Shown here: piece by piece, positions 10,110 to 33,557 of the stretch | Numbering within the stretch: position 1 is the first letter of the stretch | Layout of the letters: each line of letters starts with the position of its first letter | DNA from: Oscillospiraceae bacterium | GTDB lineage: Bacteria > Bacillota > Clostridia > Oscillospirales > Ruminococcaceae | Reading direction: 5' to 3' | NCBI GenBank assembly: GCA_031280965.1 | Contig: JAITFZ010000019.1 | Location: 1 to 34,171, forward strand | Length of the DNA stretch: 34,171 nucleotides | Made by a program: the position numbers and the translations under genes | Notes under the pieces: generated by a model | The model's database searches: none | What the model saw: only the letters and a program-made list of their open reading frames with translations | What the model was told of the DNA's origin: nothing

Positions 10110-10173
10110 TTTATTATTCCTCAAGTCCTTCCTTCATCAACGTTGTACTTTATTTCAAACTTTGCATTTTCCT

Positions 10174-11178: not shown

Positions 11179-12579
11179 TTAATCCGCTTTATCTTTGTTT
11201 AACCTCAATTTATTTTTATACCAATCTTCTTTCACATTAAGCTGTCCGCGCTCGATTGCGAGCGCGCCTGCCGGAACGTTCTTCGCTATAGTCGAGCCTG
11301 CGGCTGTAGTGGCGTTATCGCCTACTTCCACGGGCGCGATTAGGTTGGTATTACAGCCGATAAAGGCATTGTCGCCTATTATAGTACGATGTTTTTCCAA
11401 GCCGTCATAGTTCGCTGTAACCGTGCCGCAACCGAAGTTGACGTTTTTGCCCACATCGCTGTCGCCTATATAGGTTAAATGCGCCAAAGCCGTCCCCTCG
11501 CCTATTTCCGAGTTTTTTATTTCAACAAAGTCGCCGATTTTCACGTTTTTGTGCAATGTAGTGCCGGGGCGTATATGCACAAACGGCCCCGCTTTCACAT
11601 TATCGTGAATAACCGCGTCAAAAGCCTGAACGCTGTTCAAAGTCACATTATCGCCTATTTTGCAGTCGCTGATTTGGGTGTTCGGGCCGATTACACAGCC
11701 GCTTCCGATTTCGGTCTGCCCCCTTATAATCGTATTCGGCATAAGCAGTGTATCCCGCGCAATCTTGACGTCTTTGCCTATGATTACATTATGCCCGATT
11801 ATATCCACGCCCGCGACATAATGACGGTTGTTTATCATTTCGGTCATCATGTCATTAAGCTTGCGGAGCTGTCTTCGGTCGTTCGCGCCTAAAACTATTA
11901 TGCTGTCGTTCGCCATATAAGTTGACGCGCTTTTCACGAGCAGTTCCACTGTATCGGTCAGGTAAAACTCCCCGCTTTTATTGTTATCCCGAAGCTGCGG
12001 AAGCGCCCATATGAGCCGCTCCGACTTGAACCAATAAGCGCCGCTGTTTACCTCGGTTATTTTAAGTTCGTCGGGCGTACAGTCTTTCATTTCAACAATA
12101 GCCGAGAGCAAATTCGTGTTTTTATCACGCTTAACCCTGCCGTAATTCCCCGCCGGGTCAACGTTGGCTGTAATCACCGTAACATCGCTGTCCCTTGATT
12201 TATGAAGTTCATAAGCGGCGTTGATTGTACCCGCGTCCATAAACGGCGCGTCGCCGCATAAAACTAATACATCGCCGCCGTCGTCGGAAAACTCGCGGAG
12301 CATTTTTTCCGCCTGCATAACAGCATGACCGGTACCTTTTCTTTCCTCCTGTAAAAACGTGCGGTACTGCCCTTTGCTTTCAAGATATTCCGCGACCTGA
12401 ATCGCACTGCTGCCTGTGATAACGCCCACGTTCTCATCTTTGATTCCCGCATTTCTGACAGAATCCAAAACCCAGCCGAGCATAGGTTCAAAAAGCACGG
12501 TCATAAGCACCTTGGGATTAGCGGAATTCATGCGCTTTCCATCGCCGGCGGCAAGAATAATACAACATCTTTTGTCCAT
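11179..12579 (-). CDS. glmU: Bifunctional GlmU: UDP-GlcNAc pyrophosphorylase / GlcN-1-P acetyltransferase
   Basis: The 466-residue enzyme acetylates glucosamine 1-phosphate and then uridylylates it to UDP-GlcNAc, the peptidoglycan precursor. The N-terminal nucleotidyltransferase has LAAGDGKRM (residues 9-17), GTGHAVMQAE and CGDAPF. The C-terminal half is a left-handed beta-helix of hexapeptide repeats with HLTYIGDSDVG and GCGTVTANYDG of the acetyltransferase site. The start at 12579 gives the canonical MDKRCCIILAAG N-terminus. The reading frame stays open upstream through the peptide VKKGLYEN, which is shared with the rnr and bioY leaders, so an extended start cannot be fully excluded. It is the first gene of the core operon and is preceded by a structured leader. 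Confidence 0.94.
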   Translation of the reverse strand: MDKRCCIILAAGDGKRMNSANPKVLMTVLFEPMLGWVLDSVRNAGIKDENVGVITGSSAIQVAEYLESKGQYRTFLQEERKGTGHAVMQAEKMLREFSDDGGDVLVLCGDAPFMDAGTINAAYELHKSRDSDVTVITANVDPAGNYGRVKRDKNTNLLSAIVEMKDCTPDELKITEVNSGAYWFKSERLIWALPQLRDNNKSGEFYLTDTVELLVKSASTYMANDSIIVLGANDRRQLRKLNDMMTEMINNRHYVAGVDIIGHNVIIGKDVKIARDTLLMPNTIIRGQTEIGSGCVIGPNTQISDCKIGDNVTLNSVQAFDAVIHDNVKAGPFVHIRPGTTLHKNVKIGDFVEIKNSEIGEGTALAHLTYIGDSDVGKNVNFGCGTVTANYDGLEKHRTIIGDNAFIGCNTNLIAPVEVGDNATTAAGSTIAKNVPAGALAIERGQLNVKEDWYKNKLRLNKDKAD

Positions 12580-12686
12580 ATTTTCATAAAGTCCTTTCTT
12601 CACAAACAGAGGATAGCTTCGTTTTAAAACGAAGCGAAAATAACGACGTCCTCCGCACATCGAAAAATAAATTTCGCAATTACCTG
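12580..12686 (-). promoter_or_regulatory. glmU leader: copy 1 of a shared structured 5' element
   Basis: Read in the gene direction, the leader starts with CAGGTAATTGC (12686-12676). After 72 nt comes GTGAAGAAAGGACTTTAT just before the start codon. In between, CGGAGGA (12655-12649) pairs with TCCTCTG (12613-12607, one G-U). These enclose a perfect 20-nt palindrome at 12616-12635 that can form a hairpin. The same order of parts occurs before rnr and bioY. Function unknown; an RNA switch, a protein-binding leader or a dispersed repeat are all possible. Confidence 0.55.
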
Positions 12687-12709
12687 ATTTAAATATAAAC
12701 CGCCCTGCC

Positions 12710-19040: not shown

Positions 19041-19073
19041 AAGCGGGCATGGCTTTTAAAGTTATGCCCGCTT
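19041..19073 (+). terminator. Intrinsic terminator after secG
   Basis: AAGCGGGCAT (19041-19050) pairs perfectly with ATGCCCGCTT (19064-19073) around a 13-nt loop. Only a short T-run follows, so some read-through to rnr is possible. Confidence 0.7.
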
Positions 19074-19100
19074 TACGTAGGAGAGGGAACTCTGCCGCAA

Positions 19101-19118
19101 CTTATACTAAAATCCAAT
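19101..19118 (+). repeat. Copy of the terminal sequence of the MITE-like element
   Basis: CTTATACTAAAATCCAAT is identical to 31668-31685, the left end of the hairpin element before birA. The flanking GCAA just upstream is also similar at both sites. Here the rest of the element is missing, so this may be a solo end or decayed copy. It sits between the secG terminator and the rnr leader. Confidence 0.6.
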
Positions 19119-19229
19119 GGAATTGCTGTATAACATAAAGGACAACAAGATTGAAACAAAACATAACCGAAACGGGGAAAACGTCGTTTTCATTCCCCGT
19201 TGGTGAAGAAAGGACTTTATAAAAATAAC
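19119..19229 (+). promoter_or_regulatory. rnr leader: copy 2 of the shared structured 5' element
   Basis: GGAATTGC (19119-19126) is followed after 76 nt by GTGAAGAAAGGACTTTAT, 9 nt before the rnr start. Immediately before this, AACGGGG (19171-19177) pairs with CCCCGTT (19195-19201). Inside it AAAACG and CGTTTT form an inner stem. The equivalent stem has different bases before bioY and glmU but still pairs. A short reading frame from TTG at 19151, with AAAGGA 8 nt upstream, ends in VGEERTL at a TAA inside the conserved segment. Confidence 0.55.
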
Positions 19230-21320
19230 ATGAAAAAAAGATACTCCGACAAGATTATAAAAACGCTTTACAGCGCCGATAAGCCGTTAAACATCTCCGA
19301 ACTCGCAAAAGTCGCGGACGTAAAGAAAACATCCGAGCTTAAACCCGCGCTGAACGATTTGTCGCGGAAAGGCTTAATAAATCAAAGCAAGAACGGTTGG
19401 CGGTTAGCCGGAAAAGACTTTTTCAAAGCCGAAGTTATGCGGGTTTTCAAGGCGCACGGGTTCATCAGGGACGTAAAAACAAGTGAGGAATTTTTCACGC
19501 CGGGCAGAAAACTGCTCGGAAGCGTACCCGGGGATTTTGTGCTTGCAAGAGTTACGAACAAAGAAAGAGGCGAGAACCTTAATTCTGCCGCAGAGGTCGT
19601 TTTAATAGAAGAAGAAAGCCAAAACGTTCTGACCGGCATGATAGTAAAGGAAAGCGGCGGGTTTTATATCTTGCCGGACAGTTTTGCGGCTGAACCGATT
19701 TTTATTAACAGCTACAGCGGCTTCAAGCCGCGTGAGGGCGACAAAGTCAGCTTTTCCTTAAAACAGCGCGGCGAGCGCCATTCGGAGCATGTGGCAGATA
19801 TTACGTCGATTTACGGTAACGCGGGCAGTGCGCGGGTTTGCGTCAGCGCATACCTTGATGAGAAGAACATTCCGCTTGAATTCCCGAAAGAAGCGAGAGA
19901 AGACGCAAAAATTATTTCCGATAAGGGCGTTAAAGACTCCGAAAACGCTAACAGATTAGATTTGCGCGGCGATGCTGTTTTTACAATTGACGGCGCGGAC
20001 ACTAAGGATATCGACGATGCGGTTTCTGCCGAGAAAACCGGAAGCGGCTACAGGCTTGGCGTACATATTGCGGACGTGTCGCATTATGTAAGGAAGAACA
20101 GCCCGCTTGACCTTTCGGCGCTTGAGCGCGGAACCAGCGTATATATTGCGGATTTAGTTGTGCCGATGCTGCCAAAAGAGCTGTCGAACGGCATCTGCTC
20201 GCTTAATCCGAAAGCGGACAGGCTTGCGCTTTCCTGCATTATGGAGCTTAATAACAACGCGGAAATCACAGGTTTTAAGTTTGCGAAAACTATAATTAAA
20301 TCAAGGCTTCAAGGGGTATATTCGGAAATAAACGAGTTGCTTGAAAATAATGGCGATAATAACTTAAAAGAAAAATACGCGGAAGTGATAACCGCGCTTC
20401 CCGTCATGAAAGAGCTTGCCGCTAAGCTTCAAAAAAACCGAAAGGACAGAGGCGCGCCGTTTATTGAAACGAGCGAGACCAAAATTATCTGCGATGAAGC
20501 GGGAAAATGCATAGATGTGCAAAAGCGGGAGAGCGGAAAAGCGGAAAATATCATTGAGGAGTTCATGCTCGCGGCGAACAACTGCGCGGCGAAGCTTGCG
20601 ATGGAAGCTGAAATTCCGTTTGTTTACCGTATTCATGAAGCGCCGGCTGTCGAAAAGCTCGACGCGCTCAAAGAAACGCTTGCTTTAATCGGCTTTGAAT
20701 ATACATTGCAGGGGCGCGGCGCGGCAGACCTTGCGGGGATTATTGAAAAAGCACGCGGCACCGAAAAAGCCGGAATCATAAACATGACGGTACTGCGGGC
20801 TATGATGAAAGCGAAGTATTCGGATGAACCTGTAGGGCATTACGGGCTCGTCATGAAAGAATACGCGCATTTTACCTCACCAATCAGGCGGTATCCCGAC
20901 CTGATTATACACAGGATTTTAAGCGATTATATTACGAACAGCGACAAGGCGGGAGCAAGGAAACGGTACGGAAAATTTGTGCATGAAGCGGCGGTTAAGT
21001 CGTCACATGCGGAACTTCGTGCGGTTAATGCCGAACGGGACTGCGAGAAATTTTTCATGGCGGAATATATGCAAAACCATGTAGGCGGCGAATTCGACGG
21101 AATTGTTTCAGGCGTAACGCAAAGCGGCATTTTCGTTATATTGGCGAATACAGTTGAGGGCAGGATAAGTAGCGACAGCCTTGGCGTCTGCGCCGTTGAC
21201 AACAACATAAGTTTGACGGAGCAGTTATCGGGGAAGCGGTTCGCTCTCGGCGACAGGGTTAGGGTGAAGTGTACTTCGGCAAATGTTGCGTTTGGCATGA
21301 TTGATTTTGAGATTATATAA
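19230..21320 (+). CDS. rnr: Ribonuclease R
   Basis: The 696-residue 3'-5' exoribonuclease of the RNB/RNase II family degrades structured RNA and takes part in tmRNA-linked quality control. Domains are an N-terminal winged helix (about 1-60), two cold-shock domains (about 70-220), the RNB catalytic domain (about 245-580) and a C-terminal S1 domain (about 615-696). The catalytic Asp cluster is in FTIDGADTKDIDDAVS. FTSPIRRYPDLIIHR is the conserved RNB C-terminal motif. The ATG at 19230 is the first internal methionine after the shared leader. The frame is open upstream through VKKGLYKNN, so an N-terminal extension remains possible. The tmRNA gene lies 4 kb downstream; smpB is not in the window. 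Confidence 0.94.
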   Translation: MKKRYSDKIIKTLYSADKPLNISELAKVADVKKTSELKPALNDLSRKGLINQSKNGWRLAGKDFFKAEVMRVFKAHGFIRDVKTSEEFFTPGRKLLGSVPGDFVLARVTNKERGENLNSAAEVVLIEEESQNVLTGMIVKESGGFYILPDSFAAEPIFINSYSGFKPREGDKVSFSLKQRGERHSEHVADITSIYGNAGSARVCVSAYLDEKNIPLEFPKEAREDAKIISDKGVKDSENANRLDLRGDAVFTIDGADTKDIDDAVSAEKTGSGYRLGVHIADVSHYVRKNSPLDLSALERGTSVYIADLVVPMLPKELSNGICSLNPKADRLALSCIMELNNNAEITGFKFAKTIIKSRLQGVYSEINELLENNGDNNLKEKYAEVITALPVMKELAAKLQKNRKDRGAPFIETSETKIICDEAGKCIDVQKRESGKAENIIEEFMLAANNCAAKLAMEAEIPFVYRIHEAPAVEKLDALKETLALIGFEYTLQGRGAADLAGIIEKARGTEKAGIINMTVLRAMMKAKYSDEPVGHYGLVMKEYAHFTSPIRRYPDLIIHRILSDYITNSDKAGARKRYGKFVHEAAVKSSHAELRAVNAERDCEKFFMAEYMQNHVGGEFDGIVSGVTQSGIFVILANTVEGRISSDSLGVCAVDNNISLTEQLSGKRFALGDRVRVKCTSANVAFGMIDFEII

Positions 21321-22833: not shown

Positions 22834-23022
22834 GGCAATACCGGTTTCGCGGTATTTTTCTGCCTTAGGGGCAAAGTCTTCCGGCTCGATACTTTGTATT
22901 CTCTCGTCTTCTCGGCTTGACGCCAATGACTTTCAGGGTTTTGCGGAAACCCTGCTGAGAGAAAAAACATATCATACGGCGGCGAACCCGCGCAGAAATT
23001 TCATCTGCTTCCTTTTTCCCTT
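22834..23022 (-). ncRNA. Cobalamin riboswitch
   Basis: In the minus-strand transcript, GGAAGCAGATGAAATTTCTG followed by CGCGG (23012-22988) matches the 5' conserved core (GGTGAAA stem, then GCRCGG). It is followed by a CGCCGCCGTA-like variant of the usual CCGCCACTGTA element. The 3' B12 box AGCCGGAAGACTTTGCC (22886-22870) fits AGYCMGGAGACCTGCC with few changes. A further hairpin (GGC plus AATACCG/CGGTATT arms, 22834-22864) lies between the aptamer and the gene. No T-run follows it, so control may be at translation. Boundaries are approximate. Confidence 0.85.
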
Positions 23023-23034
23023 ACTCAATTTAAA

Positions 23035-23063
23035 ATGATAACATAAATCAGCCCGCATGTCAA
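23035..23063 (-). promoter_or_regulatory. Promoter of the cobalamin-uptake unit
   Basis: Minus-strand TTGACA (23058-23063), 17 nt, TATCAT (23035-23040). Transcription would start a few bases before the riboswitch aptamer, as expected. Confidence 0.75.
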
Positions 23064-23066
23064 CCA

Positions 23067-23095
23067 TTGACTTGTATATGAATTTGGGTTATACT
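23067..23095 (+). promoter_or_regulatory. Promoter of the CorC/HlyC-type gene
   Basis: TTGACT (23067-23072), 17 nt, TATACT (23090-23095), 21 nt before the start codon. Its -35 is 3 nt from the -35 of the divergent riboswitch promoter, a tight back-to-back pair. Confidence 0.7.
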
Positions 23096-25056: not shown

Positions 25057-25105
25057 TGATTATAAATACCGCAAACCGAATGTTTCACCGGATGCAAAAG
25101 AAATT

Positions 25106-25506
25106 TGGAGTCGGGGAGAATCGAACTCCCGTCCGAAAACTAATTCCCGCGCCTTTCTACACGCTTAGTTATTCGCAGTACAGGTCAAAGACCGGAATAA
25201 TCTCCCTCATGGCGGTGCAAATAACAAAACCGACACAAGGCAACCCTTTTATTACGTTTTAAGTTACAGGGTTCTCACTTAAAACGGGTGCTGTACACCC
25301 TGCCGCTGATTGACGCCCAAGCCGAAGCCGCGGCACTCTTCGGGAGGACGGCAACTGCTCTTAGGCAGCTGCTGCTAAAGTGTTATTATTAGCGTTTAAA
25401 TTTTAGTTGCCCATCGATTAGAGCGACTTTACATCACTCCGGAGATTTGGGCGCACTCCGCGTGCTTAACGAGGTTCATAACCCCCGTCGAGACCATTGC
25501 GACCCC
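25106..25506 (-). ncRNA. ssrA: tmRNA
   Basis: The 5' end, GGGGTCGCAATGGTCTCGAC (25506 downward), and the 3' end, with T-arm GTTCGATTCTCCCCGACTCC and discriminator A at 25106, pair as the tRNA-like acceptor (GGGGTC with GACTCC, one G-U). CCA is not encoded. The tag reading frame runs 25393-25361 and encodes ANNNTLAAAA followed by TAA. tmRNA with SmpB rescues stalled ribosomes and tags the nascent chain for proteolysis. This gene accounts for most of the 24952-25617 stretch, which holds no protein gene. Confidence 0.97.
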
Positions 25507-31652: not shown

Positions 31653-31670
31653 TAGTGTGCGGCAAACCTT

Positions 31671-31786
31671 ATACTAAAATCCAATAAACTTGTTTATTGG
31701 ATTTTAGGGAGGGCGCTGTTGCAACAGCGCCCGCGGCTCGCAAGCCGCGGAACCCTGTTATCCATTTCTTAAATGGATTTTAGTAT
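31671..31786. mobile_element. MITE-like hairpin-rich element with 13-bp terminal inverted repeats
   Basis: The ends ATACTAAAATCCA (31671-31683) and TGGATTTTAGTAT (31774-31786) are perfect inverted repeats. Between them lie consecutive hairpins: 16-bp arms at 31674-31689/31692-31707, a 22-bp perfect palindrome at 31711-31732, 8-bp arms at 31731-31738/31743-31750 and 7-bp arms at 31761-31767/31771-31777. There is no coding capacity. An 18-nt copy of the left end lies at 19101-19118. It sits between the esterase terminator and birA, whose start codon is 26 nt away. No transposase gene was seen and a target-site duplication is not clear. Confidence 0.6.
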
Positions 31787-32865: not shown

Positions 32866-33005
32866 TATTATGCTTAAACAAGGAGATATTATTAAGCAGG
32901 TAATTGCTAAACACGAAAATCACGGCGCACCGAAAAATGAATTTCGTAATTACCTAATTAAGTTGTTTTCATTCCTTGTTGGTGAAGAAAGGACTTTATG
33001 AAAAT
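32866..33005 (+). promoter_or_regulatory. bioY leader: copy 3 of the shared structured 5' element
   Basis: The transcript should start near 32866. CAGGTAATTGC (32897-32907) is followed after 74 nt by GTGAAGAAAGGACTTTAT. AACAAGGA (32877-32884) pairs perfectly with TCCTTGTT (32973-32980), which abuts that segment. Inside lies a second inverted repeat (AGGTAATT near 32898 with AATTACCT at 32948-32955). A 43-codon reading frame, 32870-33001, ends in VGEERTL; its ATG is about 5 nt from the predicted transcript start. Confidence 0.55.
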
Positions 33006-33557
33006 ATGAACACAAAAAAAATCCCAACCCGCGAACTATGTTATATCGCTCTTTTTGTCGCGGTAGTTGCCGTTTTGGCACAAATCAACATACCTATGCC
33101 GCTCGGAGTGCCTTTAACGCTGCAAACCTTTGCCGTAATGCTCGCCGGGATTATACTCGGCTCGAAAAAAGCGGCAATCGCGCTTATTGTTTACTTATTG
33201 CTCGGAGCCGTGGGGGTTCCGGTATTTACCCTTTTCGGCGGCGGCTTTCACCGGATAACAGGGCCGTGGGGCGGATTCCTTATGTCATATCCTGTTATGG
33301 CGTTTGTAATCGGATTAGGCGCGGATAGCGGCAAAAAGCATTGGCTTGCCGTCTGTCTTACGGCGGGCGCGGTCATAAACCTTTCGGCGGGAATGTTCTG
33401 GCTTGCTTTCGTGAGTAAAATCGGCTTGACGGAAGCTTTTGCCGCCGCCTTTGCTCCTTTCGTCATACCCGAAGGGATAAAGATGGTTATGGCGTTCAGC
33501 ATTGGCTTACCTGTGCGGTACGCTTTGAGCAGAATAAAATTTAAGAGCGCGGCTTGA
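33006..33557 (+). CDS. bioY: Biotin transporter S component BioY
   Basis: The 183-residue integral membrane protein has about six hydrophobic segments and the BioY hallmarks: IPMPLGVPLTLQTFAVMLAG near residues 30-49, GAVGVPVFTLFGGGFHRITGPWGGFLMSYP, and a final PEGIKMVMAFSI. BioY is the biotin-binding subunit of ECF or solitary biotin transporters in the cytoplasmic membrane. The start at 33006 places the shared leader segment just upstream; an in-frame extension LVKKGLYEN exists but is not expected in BioY. Regulation by BirA is visible in the operator. No biotin synthesis genes are present, so the cell may depend on uptake. Confidence 0.95.
   Translation: MNTKKIPTRELCYIALFVAVVAVLAQINIPMPLGVPLTLQTFAVMLAGIILGSKKAAIALIVYLLLGAVGVPVFTLFGGGFHRITGPWGGFLMSYPVMAFVIGLGADSGKKHWLAVCLTAGAVINLSAGMFWLAFVSKIGLTEAFAAAFAPFVIPEGIKMVMAFSIGLPVRYALSRIKFKSAA

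What the first reader, a model, noticed from the sequence alone, without database searches (positions are those of the whole stretch)
19119..19229. A shared, possibly structured leader in front of glmU, rnr and bioY
Three unrelated genes carry the same layout: a box containing AATTGC, then 72 (glmU), 76 (rnr) or 74 (bioY) nt, then a nearly identical GTGAAGAAAGGACTTTATRAAAAT that supplies the Shine-Dalgarno site. Just before that segment sits the 3' arm of a stem whose sequence differs while pairing holds: AACGGGG/CCCCGTT (rnr), AACAAGGA/TCCTTGTT (bioY), CGGAGGA/TCCTCTG with one G-U (glmU). Pairing kept despite base changes is what a functional RNA would show. Alternatives are a dispersed repeat that donates a ribosome-binding site, or a leader-peptide device. 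I do not recognise it as a described riboswitch.
Basis: partly seen in the sequence, partly recalled or inferred. Interest (0 to 1): 0.78.

Follow-up and report, generated by a model that had tools for sequence, protein, structure and literature searches.

The report
Mobile mini-leaders inserted before start codons
A gut bacterium and some of its relatives carry dozens to hundreds of copies of an 80-letter DNA element wedged between a gene's ribosome-landing site and its start codon; each brings its own landing site and usually a tiny open reading frame, so it probably hands ribosomes on to the gene instead of silencing it.

Summary
The shared segment in front of glmU, rnr and bioY is real. 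It is the 3' end of a dispersed, often tandem ~80-nt element with 123 box matches in this 2.0-Mb genome and none for the reversed control. Instead, full-length copies lie between the gene's native Shine-Dalgarno site (SD) and its ATG: an SD core precedes 34 of 55 and 29 of 47 full copies, against 4-7 in control windows. rnr orthologues without the element show the uninterrupted site. A reading frame from a TTG at the element's 5' end is open about twice as often as expected in diverse copies, in all three length classes, although the peptide is not conserved. Best explanation: a mobile miniature element that inserts at start codons and relays ribosomes through a mini-ORF and its own SD. It works like mycobacterial MIRUs, which a review describes as inserting at start codons, but is a separate-looking family in Oscillospiraceae. 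No mobiliser was found; nothing was tested at the bench.

The parts
19137..19142 (+). Native Shine-Dalgarno site of rnr (AAAGGA), now separated from the ATG by the element
   Evidence: same site directly before ATG in orthologues without the element: G023 CATAAAAGGACATAAAC|ATG, G017 CATAAAGGAACACAAC|ATG
19147..19226 (+). Full-length element (80 nt) in front of rnr, AAGATTG...AAAAAT
   Evidence: nhmmer 73.8 bits, E 2.7e-21 with the G000 model; 70.7 bits
19151..19222 (+). Putative leader ORF, TTG start, LKQNITETGKTSFSFPVGEERTL*, TAA stop ending 7 nt before the rnr ATG
   Evidence: open-frame statistics
19207..19214 (+). Element-borne second SD, AGAAAGGA
   Evidence: in one of the best conserved stretches of the family
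19230..21320 (+). rnr (RNase R: RNB, CSD2)
12580..12654 (-). 5'-truncated copy (type with the extra GCTTCGTTTTAAAACGAAGC hairpin) in front of glmU
   Evidence: 54.7 bits, E 2.4e-15
11179..12579 (-). glmU (NTP_transferase + hexapeptide repeats)
32961..33005 (+). 5'-truncated copy in front of bioY
   Evidence: 33.7 bits, E 7.9e-9
33006..33557 (+). bioY
32889..32956 (+).
   Evidence: further copies at C10:8688, C34:5385, C32:22977, C15:37443
12672..12689 (-). Part of the same palindromic repeat upstream of the glmU copy (source of AATTGC there)
   Evidence: inverted pair I25 with 32894-32911

Best explanation
A family of ~80-nt (tandem spacing mostly 73-82 nt; a longer type of roughly 101-104 nt) non-autonomous elements that insert, in the sense direction, directly upstream of start codons, between the gene's own SD and its ATG. 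The element carries a second SD (AGAAAGGA) placed so that the host ATG follows its 3' end, and usually an open mini-ORF that begins at a TTG (or ATG) just behind the native SD. Ribosomes loaded at the native SD would translate the mini-ORF up to the second SD and (re)start at the gene's ATG, so insertion costs the gene little; arrays can grow because each unit relays to the next. Shown by sequence: the anatomy, position, orientation, copy number, empty and filled sites, and the excess of open frames. Inferred: translation of the mini-ORF, coupling, and mobility of the element. Unknown: the machinery that moves it and how it finds start codons.
For: Copies: 123 in the own genome. TGAAGAAAGGACTT <=1 mm gives 404 sites in G027, 121 in G000 and 98 in G012; the other 68 of 71 same-genus genomes have 0-6, with a reversed control of 0-6. 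A sequence-only model gives 31-90 matches each in G000, G006, G012, G020, G027, G063 and G065 (65 candidates scored per genome). Position: of 108 held G000 and 98 held G027 box sites, those that end an array are followed by an ORF start in 82 of 89 and 60 of 68; in G012, whose copies are often near-identical and so presumably recent, 25 of 26 units with an ORF have it start at exactly 23 nt. SD core within 16 nt before full copies: 34/55 (controls 6, 4) and 29/47 (controls 5, 7). Empty sites: rnr in G023, G017 and G065, and the gene after C2:25915. Frame from TTG open to the box: G000 57/70 (shuffled 20.1), G027 39/53 (16.0); clusters <75% identical 22/33 against 9.8, as 6/9, 6/11 and 10/13 in the three length classes. 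The native SD core lies mostly 6-12 nt before the TTG.
Against: No expression, ribosome or insertion data. About a fifth to a third of units have a stop in the TTG frame (13 of 70, 14 of 53; 11 of 33 clusters). There is no third-codon-position excess of variation (entropies 0.35, 0.53, 0.55), so the peptide is not conserved. An earlier test anchored on the box frame showed little in G027 (30 of 76 open against 23 in the next frame). The leader's stop lies at varying places relative to the ATG, because the TTG-to-box length takes all residues mod 3. About 40% of full copies have no SD core upstream. A few copies have no gene behind them (15 of 157 array ends without an ORF start by the rule, some at stretch ends; also G012 copies in L264, L266, L270). 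One RT match in G000 and one in G012 but none in G027, and no Y1 transposase in these three.
Confidence: 0.62

Rival explanations
1. Neutral or selfish repeat that only donates an SD. The mini-ORF has no role; ribosomes bind the element's own SD (AGAAAGGA) and the native SD is a fossil.
For: The 3' box is among the best kept parts and remains alone in 5'-truncated copies (27 of 84 first units in G000, 11 of 61 in G027), which have lost the native SD (core in 4 of 27, 2 of 11) yet many still precede genes, as do glmU and bioY. The SD core is absent upstream of about 40% of full copies.
Against: Open TTG frames at about twice the expectation in all length classes, and the native SD still in place in about 60% of full copies.
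Confidence: 0.25
2. A cis-regulatory RNA network: the element is a switch in which the middle segment UUUUCAUU pairs either upstream (CGGGGAAAA) or with the SD/AUG region (AAUGAAAA), controlling many genes.
For: The SD-sequestering pairing forms in 96.2% of cells in G000 copies (36 of 500 shuffles as high; covariation score 19 of 500) and 81.0% in diverse units (72 of 500). Core CGGGGAAAACG is strongly kept.
Against: No covariation for the upstream stem, none predicted by RNAalifold, folding z-scores from -2.65 to +0.80 in six examples, no Rfam family at threshold. The genes share no evident function as far as I read them (only rnr, glmU and bioY tested with Pfam; others guessed from N-termini). 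Present and absent between orthologues.
Confidence: 0.1
3. SINE-like retroelement: 5' truncation with a fixed 3' end reflects incomplete reverse transcription.
For: Truncation is mostly at the 5' end (29 against 4 copies with the G027 model, 49 against 2 with the G000 model, in 378 kb of G027) and in the first unit of arrays.
Against: Truncated copies lack the native SD (4/27, 2/11), which target-primed insertion at the same site would leave in place. No RVT_1 in G027, which has the most box matches.
Confidence: 0.05

Closest known systems
Mycobacterial interspersed repetitive units (MIRUs; Supply et al. 1997, not held; described in review PMC12548453, passage read)
   Same: The review says MIRUs are short repeats that appear mobile, insert at start codons, and carry an ORF that becomes coupled to the gene, with little effect on its expression. 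Same principle here. Tandem arrays and similar unit length (both recalled for MIRUs).
   Different: MIRU ORFs couple with a -4 nt overlap; here the stop falls at several places and the gene ATG mostly lies 8 nt after the box ATG. Here the insertion leaves the native SD upstream in most full copies and brings a second SD; different phylum; more copies than I recall for MIRUs. No sequence comparison with MIRUs was run.
TAACTGA direct repeats of Beggiatoaceae (PMC4679880; abstract and section 13 read)
   Same: Many repeat sets just upstream of start codons, no functional pattern among the genes, ribosomal protein genes included, suggested translational role.
   Different: Heptamers with little SD character and only about 10% of repeat regions with an SD; here ~80-nt units with an SD inside and often one upstream.
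Bicistronic design (BCD) expression cassettes (PMC5995908, abstract)
   Same: Short leader cistron, then an SD for the second cistron (SD2), then the target gene.
   Different: Engineered; here natural and dispersed.
Bacterial MITEs / small mobile sequences such as ERIC and YPAL (PMC2229807, passages)
   Same: Short, multicopy, intergenic; filled and empty sites compared for YPAL.
   Different: Not tied to start codons in the passages read (a search of that text for 'start codon' and 'Shine' gave 0); our element shows no terminal inverted repeats by inspection.

Membership tests
MIRU | Short unit (about 77-101 bp, recalled) in direct tandem arrays | tested here: met
   Tandem spacings 67-104 (15 of 24 = 80) in G000 and 73-82 (36 units) in G027
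MIRU | Inserted at start codons, same direction as the gene | tested here: met
MIRU | Internal ORF coupled to the gene with -4 nt spacing | tested here: not met
   An ORF is usually present, but the stop position varies; in rnr the stop codon ends 7 nt before the ATG
MIRU | Sequence homology to mycobacterial MIRUs | not tested
   No MIRU sequence was fetched or compared
Structured regulatory RNA / riboswitch | Compensatory base changes in a conserved stem | tested here: not met
   weak hint only for another helix
Structured regulatory RNA / riboswitch | Match to a described family | tested here: not met
   only tmRNA and cobalamin in the window; three sub-threshold matches in one array region (best E 0.028, outside the units)
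REP/RAYT or IS200/IS605-derived element | Y1 transposase in carrier genomes | tested here: not met
   0 of 3 carriers tested (G000, G012, G027); drafts 87-99% complete; four other rich carriers not tested
SINE-like retroelement | Target site kept at the 5' end of truncated copies; RT in carriers | tested here: not met
MITE | Terminal inverted repeats and target-site duplication | tested here: inconclusive
   No terminal inverted repeats by inspection of the consensus; the empty/filled pairs allow but do not prove a 3-nt duplication (AAT, AAC)

The most novel reading that the evidence does not exclude
A still active transposition process that specifically recognises translation-initiation regions (SD plus AUG), perhaps on mRNA or through the initiation machinery, and spreads a natural bicistronic leader through hundreds of genes; MIRUs would then be one instance of a wider class of start-codon-seeking elements that arose separately in different phyla.
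Probability: 0.3. Interest if true: 0.85.

Novelty: new variant of a known kind. Interest (0 to 1): 0.62.

Why it matters
It would be a second lineage, far from mycobacteria, in which a miniature element lands at start codons and appears to be built to pass ribosomes on. That makes two open questions testable: how such elements find start codons, and whether a mini-ORF plus second SD keeps gene expression steady in nature as engineered bicistronic cassettes do. The box is also an annotation hazard: start codons and leaders of many genes in these genomes may be mis-called.

Tried and rejected
A1 holds 46 of the 55 cluster representatives from 105 full-length G027 units (I left out nine odd or near-redundant ones) plus the rnr copy; A2 holds 53 of 59 type-A own-genome units (duplicates and one short unit dropped). 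No covariation. An SD-sequestering helix gave only weak support.

Coding peptide: a first frame test anchored on the box was clear for G000 (50 of 76 open against 12 and 4) but not for G027 (30 against 23 and 3); a second with a loose TTG finder misplaced the TTG by one base in many units. The corrected tests gave the excess of open frames. Codon-position entropy gives no sign of a conserved peptide.

Retroelement: suggested by 5' truncation, spoken against by the missing native SD at truncated ends. RT and Y1 searches. Phage carriage: no exact match of two patterns in viral contigs. Wider range: the model over 295 genomes drawn from the order (148 genera, E <= 1e-4, 15 candidates scored per genome) finds only G000. 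Single model matches in 7 further same-genus genomes (E 4e-4 to 0.0095) do not look like the element at a gene start and were dropped as chance.

No paper describing this element was seen in those listings. What was read: abstract and one section of PMC4679880; passages of PMC2229807 and PMC12548453; abstract of PMC5995908. Supply et al. 1997 was not read.

Full report
What is there. The segment GTGAAGAAAGGACTTTATRAAAAT stands exactly before glmU, rnr and bioY. In the own genome (G000, 2.01 Mb, 36 contigs, 98.8% complete) its first 18 bases occur 123 times with up to two mismatches, 63 exactly, while the reversed control occurs 0 times. I held 110 of these 123. They belong to a unit close to AAGTTTGAAACAAAAYACAACYGAAACGGGGAAAAYGTYGTTTTCATTCCYYGTTGGTGAAGAAAGGACTTTATGAAAAT followed by the gene's ATG; a second type carries an extra GCTTCGTTTTAAAACGAAGC hairpin. 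Units form tandem arrays, mostly with 80-nt spacing (15 of 24 in G000; 73-82 nt in G027).

Where it is. Of the units that end an array, 82 of 89 in G000 and 60 of 68 in G027 are followed by an ORF start (any start codon 12-50 nt after the box begins, ORF of 50 aa or more, 30 if cut off); the commonest ATG offset is the same in both, 23 nt (60 and 31 cases). In G012, which has many near-identical copies at different genes, 26 units in 30 loci have an ORF and in 25 it starts at exactly that offset; copies in L264, L266 and L270 had none, and a few ran to contig ends. Copies read in the sense direction of the gene that follows.

The key anatomical point. In the 16 nt before the 5' end of full-length first units there is an SD core (GGAG, GAGG, AGGA or GGGG) in 34 of 55 (G000) and 29 of 47 (G027) cases; windows further upstream give 6 and 4 of 55, and 5 and 7 of 47. 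The element thus sits between the gene's own SD and its ATG. Orthologues confirm it for rnr, the finding's own gene: G023 reads CATAAAAGGACATAAAC|ATG and G017 CATAAAGGAACACAAC|ATG without the element, G000 reads CATAAAGGACAAC|element|AAC ATG, and G027 has its own copy at the same place. G012 and G065 also lack it at rnr. A second clear pair is the gene after C2:25915.

Truncated copies. 27 of 84 first units in G000 and 11 of 61 in G027 lack the 5' part (some may only be diverged there), as do the glmU and bioY copies; internal units are nearly always full (23 of 24, 35 of 37). An unanchored search of 378 kb of G027 with its own model found 151 full, 29 5'-truncated and 4 3'-truncated copies (101, 49 and 2 with the G000 model), and none in simulated DNA of the same dinucleotide make-up. 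Truncated copies have no excess of SD cores before them (4 of 27, 2 of 11). So the 5' part and the native SD were probably lost together later, and the 3' box with its SD was kept, presumably because the gene needs it. This speaks against reverse-transcription truncation.

Structure. On 47 diverse units RNAalifold predicts no pair. The named stem pairs in 74.2% of cells against 74.5% after shuffling; on 53 G000 units 91.9% against 92.0%. Another pairing, UUUUCAUU with AAUGAAAA around the box ATG, is common (81.0% and, with extra pairs, 96.2%) but only weakly above shuffles (72 and 36 of 500). Six folded leaders have z-scores from -2.65 to +0.80. The AATTGC box is not part of the element: in glmU and bioY it belongs to another dispersed palindromic repeat.

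Mini-ORF. Behind the native SD the element offers a TTG (AAGTTTGAAA), mostly 6-12 nt from the SD core. From this TTG the frame is open to the box in 57 of 70 G000 units (shuffled expectation 20.1; the frame two bases on, 23) and 39 of 53 G027 units (16.0; 12). Because copies are related, I repeated this on G027 units less than 75% identical: 22 of 33 open against 9.8 expected, and the excess holds in each of three length classes (6 of 9, 6 of 11, 10 of 13; expected 2.9, 2.8, 4.1). Insertions and deletions that change the frame at the box have thus not destroyed openness. The peptide differs by phase (ESGKT or NRGKR for the same bases) and variation is not concentrated at third positions, so translation itself, not the peptide, would be what matters. 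Depending on length, the frame stops before the second SD, a few bases before the ATG (rnr: TAA at 19220-19222, ATG at 19230), or runs into the gene. In arrays the box ATG is in frame with the next unit's TTG (read). An early test anchored on the box was unclear for G027, and one with a misplaced TTG was discarded.

Range and age. The 14-base box core is at chance level in 68 of 71 same-genus genomes (0-6 sites; reversed control 0-6) and has 98-404 sites in G000, G012 and G027. A sequence-only model finds more distant relatives: 31-90 matches each in G000, G006, G012, G020, G027, G063 and G065, 1-4 in G003, G023 and G062, and single weak matches in seven others that look like chance. I read 12 matches in G003, G006, G020, G023, G062, G063 and G065: most again lie just before an ORF start or before a further unit, with a box of their own spelling, several with an SD-like run upstream. 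In 295 genomes drawn from the order, 148 genera, only G000 matches. The one named carrier, found by exact pattern, is the Oscillospiraceae MAG Pal332_bin19.

Shared genes. Seven of 26 element-bearing G012 genes have an orthologue among the 82 held element-bearing G000 genes, where roughly one would be expected if about 1,900 genes were hit at random (my estimate). For G027 against G000 it is 3 of 60, about chance by the same estimate, and for G012 against the held part of G027 2 of 26; but those lists rest on the box pattern, and by eye 8 of the 21 pairs printed have element-like leaders on both sides. At the seven G012-G000 genes the two copies are not each other's nearest (ranks 82, 69, 16, 2, 101, 27, 75 of 108). 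So some genes may have been hit repeatedly, or copies overwritten; the evidence is mixed.

How it most likely works. The anatomy is that of a ribosome relay: native SD, mini-ORF, second SD, gene. A gene that receives the element keeps its ribosome supply through the mini-ORF and also gains an SD. That would make insertion nearly harmless, explain the sense direction and the position at the ATG, and allow arrays. Relay and mobility are inferences. How start codons are found is unknown; selection alone explains the exact junction poorly (inference). Reverse transcriptase (one match in G000, one in G012, none in G027) and Y1 transposase (none in these three) give no shared mobiliser. The complementarity of AGAAAGGA to the 16S tail could not be checked in the own genome (0 matches to the tail); 2 of 37 genomes searched have GGATCACCTCCTTTC, one of them same-genus G014, three times.

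What is known. [quoted passage not shown] the original of 1997 was not available). That is the same principle. The present element differs in the native SD left upstream, the second SD, the TTG start, the variable stop and the phylum; homology was not tested. I therefore say that it works like a MIRU and do not file it as one. TAACTGA repeats in Beggiatoaceae share the position but not the anatomy (PMC4679880).

Noticed in passing
window 32889-32956 and 12672-12689; also C10:8688, C34:5385, C32:22977, C15:37443: A second dispersed palindromic repeat (AGGTAATTGC...TAATTACCT with CGAAATT..TTTTTCG-like arms inside) abuts the truncated copies before bioY and glmU; it may have caused the truncation.
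   Followed up: partly
window 19101-19118 and 31668-31685: CTTATACTAAAATCCAAT occurs 14 times in the genome with up to 2 mismatches (reversed control 1): another small repeat, possibly promoter-related, upstream of rnr and of the gene at 31773.
   Followed up: partly
window about 10111-10162, minus strand: AAGTTTGAAATAAAGTACAAC..TGATGAAGGAAGGACTTGAGG looks like an internally deleted remnant of the element; it was not among the nhmmer matches at E 0.05.
   Followed up: no
window 22854-23070, minus strand: Cobalamin riboswitch aptamer (RF00174, 57.4 bits).
   Followed up: no
window 25105-25506, minus strand: tmRNA with tag ANNNTLAAAA.
   Followed up: no
window about 19042-19075: A hairpin CGGGC..GCCCG behind the gene upstream of rnr, similar in G012, G017 and G023; terminator-like but with a poor T-run, and very close to the rnr start in these relatives.
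   Followed up: no
own genome G000: No exact 16S tail GGATCACCTCCTTTCT in the assembly, so its rRNA may be missing from this draft.
   Followed up: partly
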